Part shown: positions 7,555 to 20,150 of the stretch, one piece after another
How positions within the stretch are numbered: the stretch's first letter is position 1
Layout of the letters: each line of letters starts with the position of its first letter
Origin: a virus
Reading direction: 5' to 3' (one strand)
Virus record (IMG/VR): IMGVR_UViG_3300031231_000003
Location: 1 to 64,000 of that record
DNA length: 64,000 bases
Made by a program: the position numbers and the translations under genes
The notes under the pieces: model-generated
Seen by the model: the letters and a program-made list of their open reading frames with translations, nothing else
Told to the model about the DNA's origin: nothing
Database searches by the model: none

Positions 7555-7734
7555 ATGAAGATCACGCTAAAGCAACTGAAACGAGTCATTAAGGAAGAGA
7601 TTACGCGATTGACCCTTCTCAAGGAAGCAAATTGTCCTGAATGCGGTACCGATGTTAAACCTCAAGGTAAAAGCAGCGATGGACACGGTGAATCTTTTAC
7701 GTGTCCAACCTGTGATCATGGATGGGAAACATAA
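7555..7734 (+). CDS. 59-aa leader-family zinc-ribbon protein
   Basis: Starts MKITLKQLKRVIKEE, the shared leader, followed by a compact domain with CPEC and CPTC pairs separated by 25 residues: a classical zinc ribbon. The first 42 nt are nearly identical to those of the next gene at 7736, so duplication is recent. The stop TAA is followed by 1 nt and the ATG of that gene. Function unknown; may be a small head-packaged or nucleic-acid-binding protein. Confidence 0.75.
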   Translation: MKITLKQLKRVIKEEITRLTLLKEANCPECGTDVKPQGKSSDGHGESFTCPTCDHGWET

Positions 7735-7735
7735 T

Positions 7736-8182
7736 ATGAAGATCACGCTAAAGCAACTGAAACGAGTCATCAAGGAAGAGGTTCAACGAATCAACGAGAG
7801 CTTTGGACGAGCTCAAGTAGCAACTCAACCTCAACCGCGTCATCTAACATTCGATCAATTGGGTGATGAATTTCCCAGTGCCGCCCAAGAATGGCAAACA
7901 CTTGCTGCGAACACGCTTGACGATGAAGACGAGGTCATTCAAGATCTCATCGACAATTCCTACTTTAGCGTTACCAATGATGGAAAAATAACCGCGGACG
8001 GAATCGAACCAGGGACAAAGTACGTTTGGAACGATCTTGGTCTTGTTTGGGACGACATGGACGGTGATGGTTCAGAGTCCGACGGAGAGTGCGAAATCTG
8101 TGGTGATCCTTGTCCGGTTGACTGGAATTTATGCGGTGATGATGAATGCTTGAATGATGAAGAGGAAGAAGGGGGATTTTGA
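7736..8182 (+). CDS. leader-family protein, acidic with CxxC motif
   Basis: 148 residues. ATG 7736 is preferred to an upstream in-frame ATG at 7652 because it gives the conserved leader MKITLKQLKRVIKEE and sits 1 nt after the 7555 gene. The body is acidic, with CEICGDPC, a further CGDDEC and a DDEEEEGGF-type tail. The two Cys groups may form a zinc site. It ends TTGA, overlapping the TTG start of the next gene. Confidence 0.7.
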   Translation: MKITLKQLKRVIKEEVQRINESFGRAQVATQPQPRHLTFDQLGDEFPSAAQEWQTLAANTLDDEDEVIQDLIDNSYFSVTNDGKITADGIEPGTKYVWNDLGLVWDDMDGDGSESDGECEICGDPCPVDWNLCGDDECLNDEEEEGGF

Positions 8183-8369
8183 AAATCTCTCTTTCCCAAC
8201 TCAGATCACTCATCAAGGAGGAGATCGAGAAACGTCGTGATAGCGTGAACATCAACAGGAAATGGGACATGATGCCCGCTCAGAACAAACGACGTCGAGT
8301 GGGAGTTCAATGTCAGCATCGCATTGTCCTTCATGTGACACAGAATTCAACGAAAGAGAAAGTAAATGA
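8179..8369 (+). CDS. leader-family zinc-ribbon gene with frame break
   Basis: TTG 8179 begins MKISLSQLRSLIKEE, the shared leader. The open frame runs on to 8427, but after ~8264 the better coding frame is the -1 frame, which gives HCPSCDTEFNERESK and stops at 8369, overlapping the ATG of the next gene. Restoring one G in GGG 8264-8266 joins the two into a ~62-residue protein much like the 7555 product. Either a sequencing error or a decayed paralogue. Confidence 0.5.
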
Positions 8370-9244
8370 AGATCACCCTACGACAGCTCAGAAACATCAT
8401 CAACGAAGAGGTCAAACGCCTCTCTGAATCCAGTCCCGTCAATCACGATAGCGACATCAACGTCGTCGAGGTCGGTGACATGGTCGATGTCGACACCGAG
8501 TACATGGGAACCTTACCCGTTCGTGTGACCGAGCTCGTCGATGACGTGAATGCCGTCGCTGGTTCCAACGAGGACGATCCTACTGGTGTACCGGGTAACT
8601 TTTCCGGCCCCGGTTTCGTCGGAGAGATCGATCCGGATTCCGGCGAAGGTGGAGAGCTCGTGTTCTCTCTGAACCAGGTCGTTCCGGGAAGCAAGGCCAA
8701 GTACTACTTTCCAAAGCTTGGTACTGAACTCGAGAACGGTCGTACATCCGACTGGGATGAGTACGGACGTGATGTTCCCAATCCGTACCGCAGAATGGCC
8801 CAACGACAGATCACGAAGTCACGCGAACCAAGTAATTCGTACGCATCTGGACTCGATGATGACTTCAATGAGGATGTTCATGGCCGAAAGAATGTGTTAG
8901 AATCTAACATGAACGATGTAACACTAGCTAGTTCACTCAGGGCGGCATTCAGCGACTTTGGAAAAACAAGAATTCAGCCTTATTATCCCGCACCGGGGAA
9001 GGTCGTTGATCTTCGTCTTTCAGAACCGGGATCAGTGAGTAAACACGAGATCATCAACACACTGGAACACGTGTTCGCACAAAACATGAATTTGGATTTG
9101 GAGCGGGAAGAAAGTATCAACGTTGATCGGTTCAACGCTGGCCAGTTTCACGTGATCGTCCAAGCGATGACAAAAGGTGGAAAACGAGCGAAATCAGATA
9201 CGGATACGATTCGTTTCGTAGTATGTTTGATTCCGAAACGCTAA
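8366..9244 (+). CDS. leader-family protein (292 aa)
   Basis: Starts MKITLRQLRNIINEE, the fifth copy of the leader. Residues 25-130 are acidic and Gly-rich with strands ending in VGDMVDVDTEY and GPGFVGEIDPDSGE, suggestive of an SH3/KOW-like barrel. The C-terminal half (from ~185) is a separate alpha/beta domain. Last and longest gene of the tandem leader set (start overlaps the preceding stop by 3 nt). Function unknown; packaged virion protein is a reasonable guess. Confidence 0.72.
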   Translation: MKITLRQLRNIINEEVKRLSESSPVNHDSDINVVEVGDMVDVDTEYMGTLPVRVTELVDDVNAVAGSNEDDPTGVPGNFSGPGFVGEIDPDSGEGGELVFSLNQVVPGSKAKYYFPKLGTELENGRTSDWDEYGRDVPNPYRRMAQRQITKSREPSNSYASGLDDDFNEDVHGRKNVLESNMNDVTLASSLRAAFSDFGKTRIQPYYPAPGKVVDLRLSEPGSVSKHEIINTLEHVFAQNMNLDLEREESINVDRFNAGQFHVIVQAMTKGGKRAKSDTDTIRFVVCLIPKR

Positions 9245-9842: not shown

Positions 9843-10100
9843 TCAATGTCGAGTGATTTCAAGCAGAATCATCTTGATGAACCTACGAAGTGATTCTGAA
9901 AATGTCCCGGCTGTCATGACAAGCAATTCATCTTCTGCGTGAATGTCTACGCCGTACGACCAAAGAACGTGAACGAACGTGAGATCATTCGTTTTATCGA
10001 CAAATATGACAATGCCGATCTCGTTTTCTTTAATAAGAGAATTCTGTGTTAAACTACGTGCTTTTTTCGTTAGCTTGACTGAGTTTCCGTTCAAAATCAT
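9843..10100 (-). CDS. cassette protein 1, copy A
   Basis: 85 residues, paralogous to the 19624-19866 product: both have [20 protein letters not shown], then VLWSYG/VLWSHG, then a C-terminal LRxFIxxIL helix. The pattern suggests a small beta barrel plus a helix. It overlaps its upstream partner (10097) by 4 nt (ATGA), as the other copy does. Function unknown; the conserved pairing suggests the two proteins work together. Confidence 0.7.
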   Translation of the reverse strand: MILNGNSVKLTKKARSLTQNSLIKENEIGIVIFVDKTNDLTFVHVLWSYGVDIHAEDELLVMTAGTFSESLRRFIKMILLEITRH

Positions 10101-10375
10101 AATGATTCAATGAACCCCCGCAACCCATCAACGTCAATTTGATTTGGATCAATCAAGCAACTCATTGATTCGTTCAAATACAATGTGAACATTTCAGGTT
10201 TAGTTTCACATGGTTCAAGTTGGAGATCATGCAATTTACAAGTTTGAACAATGTCGATAACTGAATTGCCTCGTGAAGGTTCAAAAGTAAAATACACACA
10301 TTTCGATAGAATCTCAATCAAGGATGTTCGTTGTTCGTTCGTCAGTTCTTGGTTCTTGAATTCATTGATTCTCAT
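10097..10375 (-). CDS. cassette protein 2, copy A
   Basis: 92 residues, paralogous to the 19863-20150 product. Shared features are a starting MxxxEF, an LTxxQ..(F/L)(I/V)EILS helix near residue 20, an LID.N.ID motif and an ending helix with L..I.SL. The gene is the upstream member of a coupled pair (4-nt overlap) and follows the 10377 glycosyltransferase by 1 nt. No known domain. Confidence 0.7.
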   Translation of the reverse strand: MRINEFKNQELTNEQRTSLIEILSKCVYFTFEPSRGNSVIDIVQTCKLHDLQLEPCETKPEMFTLYLNESMSCLIDPNQIDVDGLRGFIESL

Positions 10376-12868: not shown

Positions 12869-13786
12869 CTACAACACGTTGTCTAATTCGTGAACGTACA
12901 CACCCTCTGAACCTCTTTTCTTTGCGTGAGGAATACTATATCTTTTACTTACGTTAGTGGTTCCAACGATACGATACGTTCGGTTGTTTTCATTGGCCTC
13001 AATCACAATCTGAACGTCCGATTTTAAGTCGTAGCTTGTCATGTAGACGTGTCGATTTCCGGGAACGATAGTTTTGAACCCAATCTTCATTCCGTTTTTA
13101 TGATCAAGATCTGTACCACCGTCACCCACGTTCGCATGTTCATTCAATTTTGATATATTACGTTGACGTTTGTACCATTGATTCATGACTTCAAGATGCG
13201 TCATTGAAGATTGCACGAAAAACGATCCCACGATCTCACCCACCAATCCACGAAGTCGATCGTTAATATCTCCTGTCGGAGGGGGACCGTAAAATTTCGC
13301 ACTTTTAGCCAGTTTCACACAACGTTCATGATCACTTTCGGTGAGTTGCAAGGTACGAACCTTTTCGAGCAATTTCTTAGCGTATTTTTCAACGTTCGGG
13401 TTGATTTTGAATTCCATGTCGTATGTCAATGCATTCGCACAAACAACGTTCGTTGCAACGATGATCGCCCACTCGAAAGTGGGAACCTGACCGCTCGACT
13501 CAAATGCAACATGAAGAAGTCGTTGATGACATTCCTGCACATTGTCTCGTAATAGTTCCACCCCATACGTTGTCGATAAAGCTTGAACGGGTGTTGATGA
13601 TCCATTCTCGATCTTTCTCTTGATCACTTCAACGAGAAAATTACCTGAACCACATCCCGTGACATCTCCAATGACTTTCGTGGGATCCACAAAGGTTTCA
13701 TTTGGAAGTTTGTCAAGCATCTCTCGAACCAACGTGGGCGGTGTGAAGACCTCACCAAATTGATCTTTTCGTTCTTGAGATTTCAA
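12869..13786 (-). CDS. half methyltransferase fused to nuclease-like domain
   Basis: 305 residues (TTG start). Residues 8-125 match the first half of a type I/IIG-like adenine methyltransferase: GEVFTPPTLVREML, motif I DVTGCGSGNF (41-50) and GVELL (75-79), then CANALTYD where a NPPY motif should soon follow. It does not follow. Instead residues ~170-250 resemble a PD-(D/E)XK nuclease module: LVGEIVG (E184), GDGGTDL (D226) and KIGFKT (K238). The usual acid before the Lys is Gly236, so activity is doubtful. Downstream of the NPPY-bearing 13896 gene in a likely operon. Confidence 0.65.
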   Translation of the reverse strand: MKSQERKDQFGEVFTPPTLVREMLDKLPNETFVDPTKVIGDVTGCGSGNFLVEVIKRKIENGSSTPVQALSTTYGVELLRDNVQECHQRLLHVAFESSGQVPTFEWAIIVATNVVCANALTYDMEFKINPNVEKYAKKLLEKVRTLQLTESDHERCVKLAKSAKFYGPPPTGDINDRLRGLVGEIVGSFFVQSSMTHLEVMNQWYKRQRNISKLNEHANVGDGGTDLDHKNGMKIGFKTIVPGNRHVYMTSYDLKSDVQIVIEANENNRTYRIVGTTNVSKRYSIPHAKKRGSEGVYVHELDNVL

Positions 13787-13860
13787 TTCAGCTCAGTTGA
13801 AGATTGTTTTAGTTCAACACAAATTTGATCAAACCCAAGATGTATTTCAACAATCTTCAT
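13783..13860 (-). CDS. 25-residue coupled peptide
   Basis: ATG 13858-13860 is preceded by AAAGGATG at a good distance. The 25-residue product (MKIVEIHLGFDQICVELKQS...) ends with TGA overlapping the TTG start of the 12869 gene (TTGA). It fills the only real gap in this operon. It could be a small subunit or simply a device that couples translation to a weak TTG start. Confidence 0.45.
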   Translation of the reverse strand: MKIVEIHLGFDQICVELKQSSTELN

Positions 13861-13895
13861 TTTTCATCCTTTCATATACGTTTTGAATGTAATCT

Positions 13896-15143
13896 CTAAC
13901 AAAAAAAACTTTCTTCAATTGTGAGTCCGAAAACATTTTCAACGTCATCTTCATTTGCTTGATCTTGTAGATCATTCGTTACATCGGGACAAAATCCTTG
14001 TAATGAAGATCCAATGTGAGTAATCGTAAAAATTCGTGAATGATAATAACGAATTAAATTCGATTCCAACAATGCTATATGTCTTGAAGGATGCCTTGAC
14101 GGAACACATAGCAAAGAATCATGAAATGGTTGAGGTTTCACAACGCATTTATGACGCTTGAAAGTATTATACTGCTGGCCTACAAATTCATTGAAAAGAA
14201 TGAACTCAATGTCATTGTGGTTCATGATCGCATCATGTGTTTCTTTATTGGTCGAACATTGACTTTGAATGATTTTAACTTCATCAGAACCTCGATTAAA
14301 TCGAGTAACGTATGATGAGTGTTTGCCATTTTCATCTTCACTCACGCTTCCACGCCAAAATTTAACAGGTTCATGATCTTTCAATTTATCATGAACTTTC
14401 TTCACGATCGATTTTTCGATTTCAGTATCACATCGAAGAATCATTCCTTGAAATGTTTCAACATCATGTTTGACGAATGAATCTTTCTTACATGAAAGAA
14501 CCACACATTCACCCACACCAACCCCTTCAAAGGGTTCATCAAGAAACTGAGTCGATTTAATCGATACATTCGAAAGCAAGTACTCTCGACATTTTGAACC
14601 TTGTTTACCTTTCAAGAATTCACTTGGCGTGATCGTTAACATCGTTCCACCATCGCTCAATGATAACGATGCCTTCTTCAAGAATTGATAGTACGAAGGT
14701 TGTTTTCCAGAATTGTGAACATCCTCGTATCCTACATGTTTTTCAACGCCATTGTAAGGTGGGTTACCTATGATCACATCAAACTTCATCTCAGTTGTTT
14801 CTTGCAAGTATTTTTCACAACGAATATTTCGAACATTCACATCAAGTGATTTAGAGAACTCAGATTGTTCAATTGTATAACACGTGAACAACACGTTTTC
14901 AATCTTAATCGCCGTTCCATCATCTCGTTTTCCGTACTTGAGCAAAGCGACAAGTAAACCAATATCGAATACAACGTTGATCAACAAAGATTCGAGATTG
15001 ATATTTGATGAATTTTTAATGAATCGCTGGATCAACTCTTTACCAAAAGTATCAAAAGGCACAGACGGTCGTTTTAGTGGATCAGAAGCAATTGCACGAG
15101 CAATTTGCTTGTGAAGTTCTTCATTGTCACTTTTTTCTGACAT
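13896..15143 (-). CDS. NPPY adenine methyltransferase-like protein
   Basis: 415 residues. FDVIIGNPPYNG (121-132) is motif IV of an N6-adenine methyltransferase, followed by the expected KKASLSLSDGGTMLTITP and a C-terminal region that would hold the target recognition domain. Upstream, the usual cofactor loop is reduced to VVFDIGLLVALL (58-68), with no DxxxGxGxF, so AdoMet binding may be impaired. This mirrors the 12869 protein, which has motif I but no NPPY. Follows the helicase gene by 20 nt. Confidence 0.75.
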   Translation of the reverse strand: MSEKSDNEELHKQIARAIASDPLKRPSVPFDTFGKELIQRFIKNSSNINLESLLINVVFDIGLLVALLKYGKRDDGTAIKIENVLFTCYTIEQSEFSKSLDVNVRNIRCEKYLQETTEMKFDVIIGNPPYNGVEKHVGYEDVHNSGKQPSYYQFLKKASLSLSDGGTMLTITPSEFLKGKQGSKCREYLLSNVSIKSTQFLDEPFEGVGVGECVVLSCKKDSFVKHDVETFQGMILRCDTEIEKSIVKKVHDKLKDHEPVKFWRGSVSEDENGKHSSYVTRFNRGSDEVKIIQSQCSTNKETHDAIMNHNDIEFILFNEFVGQQYNTFKRHKCVVKPQPFHDSLLCVPSRHPSRHIALLESNLIRYYHSRIFTITHIGSSLQGFCPDVTNDLQDQANEDDVENVFGLTIEESFFC

Positions 15144-15163
15144 GATTTTATTCTAACACGAAA

Positions 15164-17293
15164 TCATGACCCAAACACAAGTTGCTTCAAAGATTTTTTA
15201 CGAGATTTTTCGAGTTCAACTTCGTGTTCTTCTTCCTTTTCAAGTTCATCTTGAATCTCGATACAAAGCTTCTTCGCGTAATCGTTCAATACCTTTTCGT
15301 TGATATCGAACTCATCAGCGATCTTCGTAACCCACCCAAATTCCTCGACTTCTTTACCGTGACGTTCTTCGTTCACCTCCATGAAGTGATAGTCGTTCTC
15401 ACCGAGACCAGCAAACTGAAGCTTCTTGATGAATTCTTTCAACCAGGTATTGAAATCTTCAATCTTTTCATCGTGCATGATGACGTAAACCGTCGCAGAG
15501 TACTTTTTCCAACCTTTTGGATCATCAAGTGAAATCTTTCCAAGACGAAGGTTCTCAGTATCTTCGGGTTCAGCACGAACGATTCTACCGATTCCTTGTT
15601 GGGTTCCAGTCTCCTCAAGTTCACGAGAGAAGATCAGAGAACTGAATGCAGTGATATCAGTTCCTTCTTTGACAATCGAATGTTGTGCTAAAACGGAATC
15701 ATTTGATGTTTTAATTGATTCAAAGATCTTCTTTCGATCGATGCCTTTCGTTCCAGCATGGACGGCTTGCAACAATGTATTACCAGTGATCGAATTTCTC
15801 ATTGCTTTGGAAGTTGCAATTTCCTTGTTAATTTCGGTACTTTTTCCGAACGTCAAGATGTTCGATCTTCCAACGGAAAAGATCTGATCCTTGCGAGCCA
15901 CGAGTATCGCCGCGCCCTCCATATGAGCAACCTTCGCATCGAAATTTCGTTTCTTCGCGTTCTCGATCAATTCTCGTGGGATCGCTTGCATCTTCTCCGC
16001 GGTGAGTCGAAGCGGTTTGATGATGATATTGGGAACGAGAATTCCCTTTTGACGAAGCTCAGAATACGTTACATTTGCGAAGCACTCACCGTAAACATCG
16101 GCATCGGTAAATGAATTCAAAATTCTGCCGCGTTTCTCGCTGGCCGAGAAAAAGAGATTACGTGTTGCAGGAATTGCGAGAAGATATTTTCTGTATTCAT
16201 AACTCTGCTTTACGGTATGATGAAATTCATCCCAAATAACTGTATCAATGACAAAATCATTTCGTCGAAGAATTTCAAAAAATTTTCTCTCCGATTTATA
16301 CGTGAGAAAGATTTGAATTTTCTTATCATGATATTTCTTGAAAAGATCGAGCAGTTCTTCTTCATTCGTCGTTTGTTCGTAATCAATCTGAGTATTATCA
16401 CGTGGATCATCTCCCGTACGAAATCCCAGAGGTTGAACTCCGTCATTGAACATTCCATAATTGTGAAATGTCGTATGATGCTGGATCAACAGATTGATCG
16501 TGGGTGCAACGATGACCTGAATTTTAAGATCATGCTTAAAAAAGCCATCATGAAGAAGTTGGTACTCAACTCGAGTCTTGCCACCGCCGGTCGCACAAAT
16601 GAATTTTCCTCGATTGAATTCCAGCTTCATGATTCTTGATCCCGCATCATGCATTCTAACTTGATGTTCACGCATTTCGGGGATCGAGAACTTTTGAACT
16701 TTCAAAGAACTCTTCAATGATTTCGCGAATTCAGACCAAAAATCTAAATGTCTCTTCTCAAAGAATTCCTGGGCTTCGCGACCAATAACTTGAAATACGC
16801 TTTGAAGAGTTTTCCCATCAAAATCATCGAAAATTCCATTCGAGAATTTTGAAACTTGATGGGAAAGATTCGTAAAAACTACCCTTCGATTCTGATTTTC
16901 GATTGGAATGCCCAAAACGTAACAAACACTCATCAATGATTGAAGCGAACTAAAATTGAACTTGTACGTTGGATCACTGCGATACTTCGATTGAATCACA
17001 CCACGTTCATTATTATGAGTGTAAAAGAAAAAATCGAGACCCCGTTCGAACTTGTTTTGGCTCGTATCGGTAATGTTTCCGACACCTAACGTTGTTTCTT
17101 TACCAAATCGAGCAAAAAAGTACTCGGTGTAAACTTCGAACGATTCGCCAACACGATCATTGTACAATTCATCATCGAACAATTTACCGTATGCAACAAC
17201 GGCCGCTTCGAAATCAACGTAACATCGAAGATTGTCGAACAACCCCGATTTTGCCACATTGTTCGTTGCGAGATGTTTCAACTTGATCGTCAT
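15164..17293 (-). CDS. nuclease-SF2 helicase, restriction-type
   Basis: 709 residues. N-terminal Mrr/PD-(D/E)XK-like nuclease domain: GLDFFF with D87, then QSK at 101-103. Helicase domain: Walker A ATGGGKT (234-240), DEFH (355-358), FSAS (382-385), later KEGTDI and QQGIGRIVR as motifs V and VI. A helical C-terminus follows. This nuclease-helicase order is that of type ISP (LlaGI-like) and some type III-like enzymes, in which a methyltransferase is fused; here methyltransferase parts are separate genes downstream. Acts on DNA in the cytoplasm as an ATP-driven translocating nuclease. Confidence 0.8.
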   Translation of the reverse strand: MTIKLKHLATNNVAKSGLFDNLRCYVDFEAAVVAYGKLFDDELYNDRVGESFEVYTEYFFARFGKETTLGVGNITDTSQNKFERGLDFFFYTHNNERGVIQSKYRSDPTYKFNFSSLQSLMSVCYVLGIPIENQNRRVVFTNLSHQVSKFSNGIFDDFDGKTLQSVFQVIGREAQEFFEKRHLDFWSEFAKSLKSSLKVQKFSIPEMREHQVRMHDAGSRIMKLEFNRGKFICATGGGKTRVEYQLLHDGFFKHDLKIQVIVAPTINLLIQHHTTFHNYGMFNDGVQPLGFRTGDDPRDNTQIDYEQTTNEEELLDLFKKYHDKKIQIFLTYKSERKFFEILRRNDFVIDTVIWDEFHHTVKQSYEYRKYLLAIPATRNLFFSASEKRGRILNSFTDADVYGECFANVTYSELRQKGILVPNIIIKPLRLTAEKMQAIPRELIENAKKRNFDAKVAHMEGAAILVARKDQIFSVGRSNILTFGKSTEINKEIATSKAMRNSITGNTLLQAVHAGTKGIDRKKIFESIKTSNDSVLAQHSIVKEGTDITAFSSLIFSRELEETGTQQGIGRIVRAEPEDTENLRLGKISLDDPKGWKKYSATVYVIMHDEKIEDFNTWLKEFIKKLQFAGLGENDYHFMEVNEERHGKEVEEFGWVTKIADEFDINEKVLNDYAKKLCIEIQDELEKEEEHEVELEKSRKKSLKQLVFGS

Positions 17294-17784: not shown

Positions 17785-18087
17785 TCATGCAACGATGCTG
17801 TAGTTCACTGGAACACACATATCGATATCGACTTCGCCGCGAGCACCAGCATTTCTAAACAAGCTTTTTCCCAACGAATCAACCGTTAACCACGTGATCC
17901 TCACGAGATCGTATTCAACACGTGACATTCGCGTGATGGGAGTTACACCATTGACCAGTTGCGGCAACGCTTCAAGTACACCTTTCGACCTTATGACGGA
18001 TACGGCTAACCATAATTGCTGTGATCTTTCATCGAACATCATACTGCCAGGATTGAGATCTCTGAACGTTTTCATAAAAATTTCCAA
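17785..18087 (-). CDS. small PG-turn beta protein
   Basis: 100 residues; an internal ATG at 18075 (MKTFRDLNPGSMMFDE) may be the true start. The KTFRDLNPGSMM opening is very like KLTFRDIRPGDLLLWD of the 37946 protein, and both sit in minus-strand runs. Likely a member of a dispersed family of small beta-barrel proteins. Overlaps the GIY-YIG gene upstream by 16 nt from the first ATG, or 4 nt from the second. Confidence 0.6.
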   Translation of the reverse strand: MEIFMKTFRDLNPGSMMFDERSQQLWLAVSVIRSKGVLEALPQLVNGVTPITRMSRVEYDLVRITWLTVDSLGKSLFRNAGARGEVDIDMCVPVNYSIVA

Positions 18088-18770
18088 TCATCCGGAAATG
18101 GTTTTCGATTATTGTCACGTCTCCATTTTGCATACCTTTTTTTCAAATTATCACTAATCATCTGGTGATGAAGTTTTCGTTCTTCTTCCGTTAGATTTGC
18201 ATAAAACTTTTTAATAGATTCTTTTCTTTTCAATTTCGTTTCTTCTGATTGTTTAAATCCAAGATTACCCCGTTTTCCCTTCATCGCATTACTCAAATTT
18301 TTACGTTGTTCAACGGTATATTTGTAACCTTCACTATTTTTATTTCCTTTGAGTCTCTCACTTTGAGATTTCTTCCATTCGGGTGAATGTCGATATCCAA
18401 CTCCATTTTTATTGCCTTTTAGAGCATCAGATTTTAGTTTACGAGTTTCTTCAGGTGTGTAAGAAAAACAAGAACGAATTCCATTACCACCCGGACGAAG
18501 ATTACAAACATTTCTTGATGCCAAAGGATCTTTATAAAATGTGTGATATTCTTCAATGAGTCGAATTTCTTGTTCATACGCAAATTCTTCATCGTACGTT
18601 CCAAGAACGATCTCACGAATGATACCATATTTCAAGTACTTGCGATTGTATTTCTTGTTTCGCTCAAGACATCGAACACGTCTATCATTTCCCTTGCCAA
18701 TGTAGATAATTTCGTTCGCATTTTTGCCAGTTTCAAGACGATCAATGTAGATATAAAACCTCTTCTTCAT
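18072..18770 (-). CDS. GIY-YIG homing endonuclease with NUMOD3 repeats
   Basis: 232 residues. Nuclease domain: RFYIYIDRLE, then IIYIGKGNDRRV with the catalytic Arg, a Glu in the EQEIRLIEEY helix, and RPGGNG. Three to four NUMOD3-type DNA-binding repeats follow (KGNKNGVGY, KGNKNSEGY, KGKRGNLGF). A 9-bp inverted repeat ends 1 nt before the start codon and could mask it. Inserted between thyA and the 17785 gene. Confidence 0.88.
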   Translation of the reverse strand: MKKRFYIYIDRLETGKNANEIIYIGKGNDRRVRCLERNKKYNRKYLKYGIIREIVLGTYDEEFAYEQEIRLIEEYHTFYKDPLASRNVCNLRPGGNGIRSCFSYTPEETRKLKSDALKGNKNGVGYRHSPEWKKSQSERLKGNKNSEGYKYTVEQRKNLSNAMKGKRGNLGFKQSEETKLKRKESIKKFYANLTEEERKLHHQMISDNLKKRYAKWRRDNNRKPFPDDWKFL

Positions 18771-18814: not shown

Positions 18815-19627
18815 CTACACGGCAATCGGCGCTTTGATACCAGCATGAGGATTGTACCCTTCGATCTTGATATCATCGTACGTGAAGTCATCGATACAAC
18901 GTGCATTCGGGTTCAATTTCAAAATGGGTAGTTGCTTCGGATTTCGCGTCAATTGCAACGTTGCTTGATCAACGTGGTTCTTGTACAGGTGCAAATCCCC
19001 GAAGGTGTGAACAAAATCTCCAACCTGAAGATCACATACTTGGGCGATCATGTGTGTCAATAGAACGTAGCTTGCAATGTTCAGCGGGACACCCAAAAAA
19101 ATATCTCCCGAGCGCTGATATAACTGACAACTCAATTTTCCGTTCATCACCTTGAAATGAAACAAGGAATGACACGGCGGCAGGGCCATGTTCGGAACGT
19201 CGACAGGGTTCCAAGCTGAGACGATGAGTCTACGTGAGGTCGGATTTTTCTTGATCTCCGCGATGACATTCGCGATCTGATCAATGTGACCTTTTTCGTG
19301 ATCAATGGGACCCGTATCGTATTCCCACCTTCGCCATTGCTTTCCATAAACGGGACCCAGATCTCCATTCTCGTCAGCCCACTCGTCCCAGATACGAACA
19401 TCGTTGTCCTGAAGGTACTTCACGTTCGTGTCTCCCTTCAGAAACCAGAGCAACTCGTGCACGACGCCTTTCATGAAGACCTTCTTGGTCGTCAATAGGG
19501 GAAATCCTTTGGAGAGGTCGAAACGCATCTGACGACCGAACACGGACAACGTACCAACACCCGTGCGGTCATCGGTTGGTTCACCGTTCTCAAGGACGTC
19601 GTGTAGGAGATCAAGGTACTGTTTCAT
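18815..19627 (-). CDS. thyA: thymidylate synthase
   Basis: 270 residues covering a complete ThyA: the [12 protein letters not shown] opening with the phosphate-binding Arg, [10 protein letters not shown] with the catalytic Cys, a [16 protein letters not shown] segment and the C-terminal I-A-V end. Converts dUMP to dTMP with methylene-tetrahydrofolate. Overlaps the upstream cassette gene (19624) by 4 nt. Secure. Confidence 0.97.
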
Positions 19628-19866
19628 GATACGAATTCCAAGATCGAACGAATGAATTTTCGTAAGAATCGTTCATCAAGATCATTTAAATGACAGATTT
19701 GATCAACGAAATGATGTTCAATTCCATGGCTCCATAAAACGATCACGATATCTGTATCAGAATACGCAAGAACTAAACCAATTTCATTCTCTTTGATGAA
19801 TTTATTTGAGGTAAGTTCGTATGATTTCTTTTTAAGCCTGACTTGATGATTGGGTAAAAATTTCAT
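19624..19866 (-). CDS. cassette protein 1, copy B
   Basis: 80 residues, paralogue of the 9843-10100 product. Shared blocks: [22 protein letters not shown] with H, and LRKFIRSIL. Here the pair lies upstream of thyA, whereas copy A lies downstream of a glycosyltransferase. The 4-nt overlap with cassette gene 2 is preserved. Confidence 0.72.
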
Positions 19867-20150
19867 AATGAAGAAATCAATTCTTGCAAACGTTTTAGAT
19901 CAATATGGTTTGTATCAATCAACATTAACCCAAAATCATGGTATCGCAATACCCAAACGTTGTTTTGTTTTTCAACGACGACGGTTTCTTTCAAGATTTG
20001 AAAATCATCATTGTTGAATCCCCTGAGGGGTGAAACTCCATCAGACGTCAACATTCTGTAAGGAGGGTATTCACTTAAAATTTCGACGAATGCTTCTTTT
20101 TGTTGTTTTGTCAAAAATTGACTTGTTTGATTGAATTCTTTTAGTTTCAT
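19863..20150 (-). CDS. cassette protein 2, copy B
   Basis: 95 residues, paralogue of the 10097-10375 product; common points are MKLKEF, the FVEILS helix, LIDTNHID and the C-terminal LQELISSL. Gene order, coupling and spacing match copy A, so the two genes were duplicated or acquired together. Overlaps the upstream gene (20147) by 4 nt. Confidence 0.72.
   Translation of the reverse strand: MKLKEFNQTSQFLTKQQKEAFVEILSEYPPYRMLTSDGVSPLRGFNNDDFQILKETVVVEKQNNVWVLRYHDFGLMLIDTNHIDLKRLQELISSL

What the first reader, a model, noticed from the sequence alone, without database searches (positions are those of the whole stretch)
12869..17293. Split, type ISP-like restriction cassette carried by a phage
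A nuclease-SF2 helicase (709 aa) is followed by an NPPY methyltransferase-like gene and then by a motif-I methyltransferase half fused to a PD-(D/E)XK-like domain. Known type ISP enzymes hold nuclease, helicase, methyltransferase and recognition in one chain. Here they are split into three, plus a tiny coupled ORF, with an odd division of motifs. It could be a novel phage-borne defence or inter-phage competition system.
Basis: partly seen in the sequence, partly recalled or inferred. Interest (0 to 1): 0.75.

Follow-up and report, generated by a model that had tools for sequence, protein, structure and literature searches.

The report
Phage restriction system with split methyltransferase
A phage carries a DNA-cutting and DNA-marking system related to bacterial Type ISP enzymes, but cut into separate proteins, with the part that should hold the methyl donor moved onto a small second subunit that many other phages keep and appear to share between interchangeable partners.

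Summary
The three genes are real and belong together, and "split, Type ISP-like" is largely right. The helicase family's best solved relatives are the Type ISP enzymes LlaGI and LlaBIII (E about 1e-28); its N-terminal nuclease family keeps the Mrr-type E...GxD...QxK residues, with LlaBIII as its best solved match (E=0.003). The "tiny coupled ORF" is not a gene: a sibling contig has one T fewer in a poly-T run, which extends the NPPY protein (M) to 431 aa.

The new part is the methyltransferase. M has the catalytic NPPY but a ruined SAM-binding motif I. The next gene (S) has motifs X, I, II and III intact and stops before motif IV. Among 37 non-redundant nuclease+helicase+M+S cassettes, 36 M lack motif I and 36 S have it. 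Elsewhere M starts directly at motif IV. In Synechococcus phage ACG-2014f such an M lies 100 kb from the phage's only S, and S is kept when the nuclease-M-helicase block is absent. In S-CAM7, two unrelated nuclease/helicase/M blocks replace each other upstream of the same S.

Best reading: a phage-borne restriction-modification system in which S lends its SAM half in trans to exchangeable M subunits. No activity or complex was tested.

The parts
15164..17293 (-). Mrr-like nuclease fused to SF2 helicase/translocase (709 aa); nuclease about 16694-17293, helicase about 15374-16696
   Evidence: Pfam ResIII 1.9e-11; nuclease family invariant E53, E57, G85-x-D87, Q101-x-K103 in 13 members; helicase profile best PDB hits LlaGI 3.9e-28 and LlaBIII 8.6e-28; nuclease profile hits LlaBIII 0.003
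13896..15143 (-). M: adenine methyltransferase catalytic and presumed target-recognition subunit, NPPY at 14754-14765, degenerate motif I at 14952-14975; in the sibling contig the reading frame runs on (431 aa, stop equivalent to about 13847)
   Evidence: Eco57I 2.5e-17; profile hits CamA and M.BseCI; AlphaFold model matches CamA and M.TaqI; frame extension in L008; motifs
13847..13975 (-). NOT a gene: out-of-frame copy of M's C-terminal tail, produced by a one-base difference in the poly-T run at 13901-13908
   Evidence: L008 has 7 T, window 8; sequence
13397..13786 (-). S domain: separate SAM-binding half of a gamma-class methyltransferase; motif X 13739-13756, motif I 13643-13666, motif III 13418-13435; TTG start
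   Evidence: half-Rossmann model, block means of pLDDT 91-97 over residues 21-120; profile hits CamA and M.BseCI residues around motif X/I; relatives; motif positions
12869..13396 (-). C-terminal extension of S (about 175 aa), weakly PD-(D/E)XK-like (GDGGTDL...IGFKT); seen only in this phage and its sibling contig
   Evidence: no Pfam, PDB or phage match; low-confidence alpha/beta model; CTD profile hit 5 ORFs in fetched loci, those of the sibling contig and the window's own genome

Best explanation
This is a phage-borne, ATP-dependent restriction-modification cassette related to Type ISP enzymes but divided over three proteins. Shown by sequence: an Mrr-like nuclease plus SF2 motor in one chain; an NPPY methyltransferase M without a usable SAM-binding motif; and a small protein S carrying that SAM-binding half. 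Inferred: S binds SAM and docks on M to rebuild the active site in trans, so that M+S methylates the phage's own DNA at M's target; M (with or without S) guides the nuclease-motor to unmethylated copies of the target, where it translocates and cuts. S is the constant subunit, and the nuclease/helicase/M block is the exchangeable specificity part. The biological target (rival phages or the host chromosome) is inferred only.
For: Helicase and nuclease profiles match Type ISP enzymes, and the nuclease has the QxK form described for Type ISP (PMC3874165). Nuclease signature intact in 37/37 cassettes and Walker A in 35/37. M lacks canonical motif I in 36/37 such cassettes while S has it in 36/37; S has it in 117/118 unfiltered viral ORFs. 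M begins at motif IV in about 10 non-redundant M-S pairs. M and S genes usually overlap by 1-30 bases, suggesting translational coupling. Several M can share one S: five tandem M with near-identical N-halves and divergent C-halves; two nuclease-helicase-M units and one S (L128). ACG-2014f: an M starting at motif IV lies 100 kb from the only S that the profile finds in isolate C12, and both are present in all 26 records. S-CAM7: unrelated blocks are exchanged right up to the S start codon, with S 95.5% identical.
Against: In the M model the degenerate N-half is still folded (low confidence), so S would have to displace it or bind another way. In about 17 of 59 pairs without nuclease/helicase, M has its own canonical motif I yet S is still present, so S may have another role there. 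The window M keeps motif IV but its target-recognition domain is inferred from position only.
Confidence: 0.68

Rival explanations
1. S is not a catalytic half but a regulator: a SAM-binding sensor or switch that associates with M (or with the nuclease-helicase) and decides between methylation and restriction, while M works by some unusual SAM-binding mode of its own.
For: S accompanies M proteins that still have canonical or near-canonical motif I (17 canonical and 21 variant of 59 pairs without nuclease-helicase), including the bacterial S-M-GIY-YIG/helicase cassettes with DPACKSGVFL in M. M's N-half is kept and predicted folded.
Against: Where M lacks the N-half altogether there is no other visible source of motif I. 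The complementary loss in M and retention in S is what a catalytic division of labour predicts.
Confidence: 0.2
2. The system acts mainly on the host: a lytic phage methylates its own DNA and uses the nuclease-motor to break up unmethylated host chromosome, rather than to exclude other phages.
For: The relatives with known names are tailed phages with T4-type genomes such as Synechococcus phages Bellamy, ACG-2014f and S-CAM7. Any restriction system expressed by the phage would also meet unmethylated host DNA (inference).
Against: T4-type phages usually have other host-DNA nucleases (general knowledge). Rapid exchange of blocks between close isolates looks more like an arms race over specificity.
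Confidence: 0.3
3. Only the methyltransferase matters: it protects phage DNA from host restriction, and nuclease and helicase are relics or do recombination work (UvsW-like).
For: M-S pairs without any nuclease or helicase are common. The helicase is distantly related to UvsW.
Against: UvsW-like helicases (about 400 aa) form a separate set without nuclease, M or S (29 of 76 loci), and phages such as Bellamy carry one next to the cassette helicase. Nuclease residues are conserved in all 37 cassettes. The nuclease-M-helicase block is present or absent as one unit.
Confidence: 0.12
4. The separate genes are a broken single Type ISP gene or an assembly artefact.
For: One homopolymer difference exists between sibling contigs.
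Against: The same division recurs in dozens of unrelated contigs and in several named phage records, with different gene orders. S is a paralogue of M's N-half rather than its continuation.
Confidence: 0.02

Closest known systems
Type ISP restriction-modification enzymes LlaGI and LlaBIII (PDB 5ffj, 4xqk)
   Same: Mrr-like nuclease with QxK, SF2 motor whose best solved relatives are these two enzymes, gamma-class NPPY methyltransferase, presumed C-terminal target recognition
   Different: Type ISP is one chain with its own motif I; here nuclease-motor, catalytic methyltransferase half and SAM-binding half are separate genes and M's motif I is degenerate
CamA, M.BseCI, M.TaqI (gamma-class N6-adenine methyltransferases)
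   Same: S matches their motif X/I region and M their motif IV and downstream region; the M model superposes on them
   Different: those are single chains in the order X-I-III-IV-VIII-TRD; here IV-VIII-TRD and X-I-III are different genes, with M first in the window
Two-polypeptide C5 methyltransferases M.AquI and M.EcoHK31I (PMC3404938)
   Same: one methyltransferase made of two gene products
   Different: C5 class, and motifs I-VIII stay together on the large subunit; here SAM motif I and catalytic motif IV are on different chains
Bacterial S-M-GIY-YIG/SF2 three-gene cassette (e.g. Riemerella columbina DSM 16469, L163); PADLOC Type IIG PDLC03626 and MTase_II PDLC03375
   Same: same S and M families side by side with a nuclease-helicase
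   Different: GIY-YIG instead of Mrr-like nuclease; M keeps a near-intact motif I (DPACKSG); order S-M-R
Cyanophage genes annotated 'type II restriction-modification system restriction subunit', 'DNA methyltransferase', 'hypothetical protein' (S-CAM7 CC49, Bellamy, ACG-2014f)
   Same: same modules in sequenced phages
   Different: annotated gene by gene, with S and the nuclease as 'hypothetical'; nuclease unfused; window S has an extra C-terminal domain
Non-catalytic/catalytic methyltransferase pairs such as Gcd10p/Gcd14p (PMC1282579)
   Same: paralogous pair, one member unable to bind SAM
   Different: there SAM binding and catalysis stay on the same subunit

Membership tests
Type ISP restriction-modification enzyme | Mrr-like nuclease, PD-QXK | tested here: met
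   GxD...QxK and E residues invariant in 13 family members; relatives hit Pfam Mrr_cat_2; profile hits LlaBIII nuclease at E=0.003. The window sequence alone gives no Pfam hit.
Type ISP restriction-modification enzyme | SF2 translocase related to LlaGI/LlaBIII | tested here: met
   profile best hits 5ffj 3.9e-28 and 4xqk 8.6e-28, ahead of UvsW 1.6e-16
Type ISP restriction-modification enzyme | all domains in one polypeptide | tested here: not met
   three genes in the window, four in most relatives
Type ISP restriction-modification enzyme | gamma-class methyltransferase with motif I and IV in order in one chain | tested here: not met
   motif IV in M, motif I in S, M's own motif I degenerate
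Type ISP restriction-modification enzyme | coupler domain and C-terminal target-recognition domain | tested here: inconclusive
   M model beyond the catalytic domain is mostly low confidence
Type ISP restriction-modification enzyme | ATP-driven translocation and cleavage between head-to-head sites | not testable with these tools
   needs biochemistry
gamma-class N6-adenine DNA methyltransferase (M plus S together) | motifs X, I-III, IV (NPPY) and Rossmann fold | tested here: met
   only when M and S are taken together
UvsW-type phage recombination helicase | stand-alone about 400-500 aa helicase without nuclease/methyltransferase neighbours | tested here: not met
   window helicase belongs to the set linked to NUC, M and S; UvsW-like loci form a separate set
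PD-(D/E)XK nuclease (C-terminal domain of S) | recognisable family match or complete D...(E/Q)xK site | tested here: inconclusive
   no family, PDB or phage hit; GGTD...GFK; low-confidence model

The most novel reading that the evidence does not exclude
S is a general-purpose SAM-binding subunit used in trans: one small protein supplies the cofactor half to several interchangeable, even unlinked, catalytic/specificity subunits, and thereby to restriction systems with different nucleases (Mrr-like or GIY-YIG-like). Phages can swap or stack specificities by exchanging only the upstream block. The decay of M's own half shows an adenine methyltransferase being divided between motif III and motif IV, with the catalytic-half gene placed before the SAM-half gene as in the beta-class motif order.
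Probability: 0.5. Interest if true: 0.85.

Novelty: new variant of a known kind. Interest (0 to 1): 0.72.

Why it matters
SAM-binding motif I and the catalytic NPPY form one active site; I found no described DNA adenine methyltransferase that puts them on different proteins (10 full-text searches, open-licence papers only). If S works in trans, it makes a testable model for how methyltransferases are split and permuted, explains a widespread 'hypothetical' phage gene, and shows phages carrying exchangeable restriction systems in which one cofactor subunit serves several specificities. Bellamy, ACG-2014f and S-CAM7 already offer natural present, absent and swapped alleles for the test.

Tried and rejected
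Single-protein IMG/VR scans with M or S found only the sibling contig. The nuclease alignment was too divergent to scan with, so I used the helicase. The idea that the three genes are a broken single gene was rejected because the division recurs. The idea that the helicase is UvsW was rejected by separate clustering and PDB ranking. The tiny ORF was rejected as a gene. The C-terminal domain of S could not be identified. The PDB fold search with the whole S model gave only weak hits (DrdV 0.022, BsaXI 0.068, LlaGI 0.2). Regex classes of M motif I have errors: the six 'variant' calls among the 37 cassettes were judged degenerate or unreadable by eye, and non-redundant counts are not phylogenetically independent (Fisher p=0.001 for motif I loss with versus without nuclease-helicase, should be read with that caution). 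The S used for counts were pre-filtered on motif I; the unfiltered count is. Literature searches found no description of this split, but subscription papers and REBASE were not available.

Full report
WHAT WAS CHECKED. The window is part of a 124,421-base virus record. On the minus strand, 17293-15164 encodes a 709-aa nuclease-helicase, 15143-13896 an NPPY methyltransferase (M, 415 aa) and 13786-12869 a 305-aa protein (S). The 'tiny coupled ORF' is not a gene. A sibling contig (IMGVR_UViG_3300030846_000109, L008) is identical over 4.8 kb except for one T fewer in a poly-T run (window 13901-13908). In it M continues to 431 aa with exactly the residues that the tiny ORF encodes out of frame. I cannot say which contig is right.

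NUCLEASE AND HELICASE. The first protein matches ResIII (1.9e-11). An alignment of the helicase family used as a profile finds LlaGI (3.9e-28) and LlaBIII (8.6e-28), the Type ISP enzymes, as its best solved relatives, ahead of XPB-type enzymes and UvsW (1.6e-16). The N-terminal domain of the window protein, encoded as a separate gene in most relatives, keeps E53, E57, GxD 85-87 and QxK 101-103 in all 13 aligned members. Four members hit Mrr_cat_2 and the profile's best PDB match is LlaBIII (0.003). Type ISP nucleases are described as Mrr-like with PD-QXK (PMC3874165).

THE METHYLTRANSFERASE IS DIVIDED IN AN UNUSUAL WAY. A profile of S matches CamA and M.BseCI around motifs X and I, and a profile of M matches the same proteins from around motif IV onwards. 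S residues 11-123 carry GEVFTP (X), DVTGCGSG (I), YGVEL (II) and NALTYD (III) and no motif IV. Its model is a half-Rossmann fold with block means of pLDDT 91-97 over residues 21-120. M carries NPPY at 127, preceded by a degenerate copy of the N-half (VVFDIGLLVALL where DPxxGxG is expected). Its model is a low-confidence full fold that matches CamA and M.TaqI (E about 1e-8). S profiles hit the N-half of many M proteins, so S and M's N-half are paralogues.

CONSERVATION. An S-based scan of IMG/VR gave 457 relatives (80 loci kept), and M-based and helicase-based scans gave 50 and 76 loci. The helicase-based scan is blind to M and S: 38 of 76 loci have all four modules, while 29 are UvsW-like helicases with none of the others. 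Pooling gives 159 S loci, 108 non-redundant. Thirty-seven have nuclease, helicase, M and S, in at least six gene orders (H-M-N-S 19, H-N-M-S 6, N-H-M-S 4 and others). In these 37, the nuclease signature is intact in 37, Walker A in 35, motif I of S in 36, and canonical motif I of M in 1. In pairs without nuclease and helicase, M has canonical motif I in 17, a variant in 21, a degenerate one in 11, and starts at motif IV in 10. M and S usually overlap by a few bases. The window's closest relatives are L219/L128 (49% in the helicase, also fused nuclease-helicase) and L218 (47%).

EVIDENCE THAT S IS A SHARED SUBUNIT. (1) In L037 five tandem M genes precede one S. Their first ~100 residues are 79-98% identical and the rest mostly 18-39%, and the spacers carry a remnant of the 5' end of S. 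(2) L128 has two nuclease-helicase-M units and one S. (3) In Synechococcus phage ACG-2014f, isolate C90 has S followed by nuclease, M and helicase. Isolates C12 and US4 lack exactly that block, with flanks 98-99% identical, and S is 100% identical between C90 and C12. C12 has one other M of this family, 100 kb away, that starts at motif IV (MKFDVVIGNPPY...), and no other S that the profile finds. This M and S are both present in all 26 ACG-2014f records. (4) S-CAM7 isolates CC49 and SB42 have flanks 99.5% identical. The right-hand identity begins one base before the S start codon. CC49 carries a helicase with a GIY-YIG-like N-terminus (by eye) and an M; SB42 carries nuclease, M and helicase. 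The two M and the two helicases show no BLAST similarity, while S is 95.5% identical.

BEYOND PHAGES. The same S and M families occur in bacterial genomes as S-M-(GIY-YIG+SF2) in more than 50 of 80 fetched loci, with a variant motif I (DPACKSG) in M. PADLOC knows the M and R parts as Type II/IIG proteins.

MECHANISM. Shown: composition, conserved catalytic residues, complementary motif loss, coupling of genes, exchange of blocks with a constant S. Inferred: S binds SAM and completes M's active site in trans; M+S marks self DNA; the nuclease-motor cuts unmarked DNA. How S fits an M that keeps a degenerate N-half is unresolved: displacement, or another interface. In pairs where M keeps motif I, a regulatory role for S cannot be excluded. 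Whether the target is rival phages or the host is unknown.

KNOWN OR NEW. It works like a Type ISP system and is related to it, but fails two tested defining features (single chain; ordered motifs in one chain), so I call it a split relative, not a member. Natural two-chain methyltransferases exist (M.AquI, M.EcoHK31I; PMC3404938), but there motifs I-VIII stay together. A jumbo-phage survey mentions circularly permuted M.EcoKI-like adenine methylases (PMC7824862); I did not find the M/S split or its nuclease-helicase partners described in the passages read or in ten literature searches. I rate it a new variant of a known kind.

Noticed in passing
L037:1421-8459 (also L091): Array of five tandem methyltransferase genes with near-identical N-halves and divergent catalytic/recognition halves, sharing one S gene; spacers carry remnants of the S 5' end. 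Looks like a specificity-diversifying array.
   Followed up: partly
L003 versus L287 (S-CAM7 CC49 and SB42): Exchange of two unrelated restriction/methylation blocks with the junction at the S start codon, flanks 99.5% identical.
   Followed up: partly
L163, L144, L158 and about 50 other bacterial loci: Widespread bacterial three-gene cassette S-M-(GIY-YIG + SF2 helicase); M has lysine in place of the first motif I glycine (DPACKSGVFL).
   Followed up: partly
L128:2796-11207: Two complete nuclease-helicase-M units in tandem followed by a single S whose motif I is altered (DNSCGNAAFL).
   Followed up: no
window 9843-10375 and 19624-20150: A two-gene pair appears duplicated (KENEIG...VLWS and MK..EF...EIL proteins) on both sides of the stretch holding glycosyltransferases, this cassette, a homing endonuclease and a thymidylate synthase.
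   Followed up: no
window 18072-18770: NUMOD3 homing endonuclease (Pfam and PHROG hits, GIY-YIG-like N-terminus by eye) about 0.8 kb from the cassette; a possible mover of the region.
   Followed up: no
window 7652-9244: Three neighbouring ORFs begin with the same MKI(T/S)L(x)QL(x)(x)(x)I(x)EE(V/I) segment, like a repeated targeting or propeptide signal.
   Followed up: no
window 12869-13396: About 175-aa C-terminal extension of S with no detectable relatives outside the sibling contig.
   Followed up: partly
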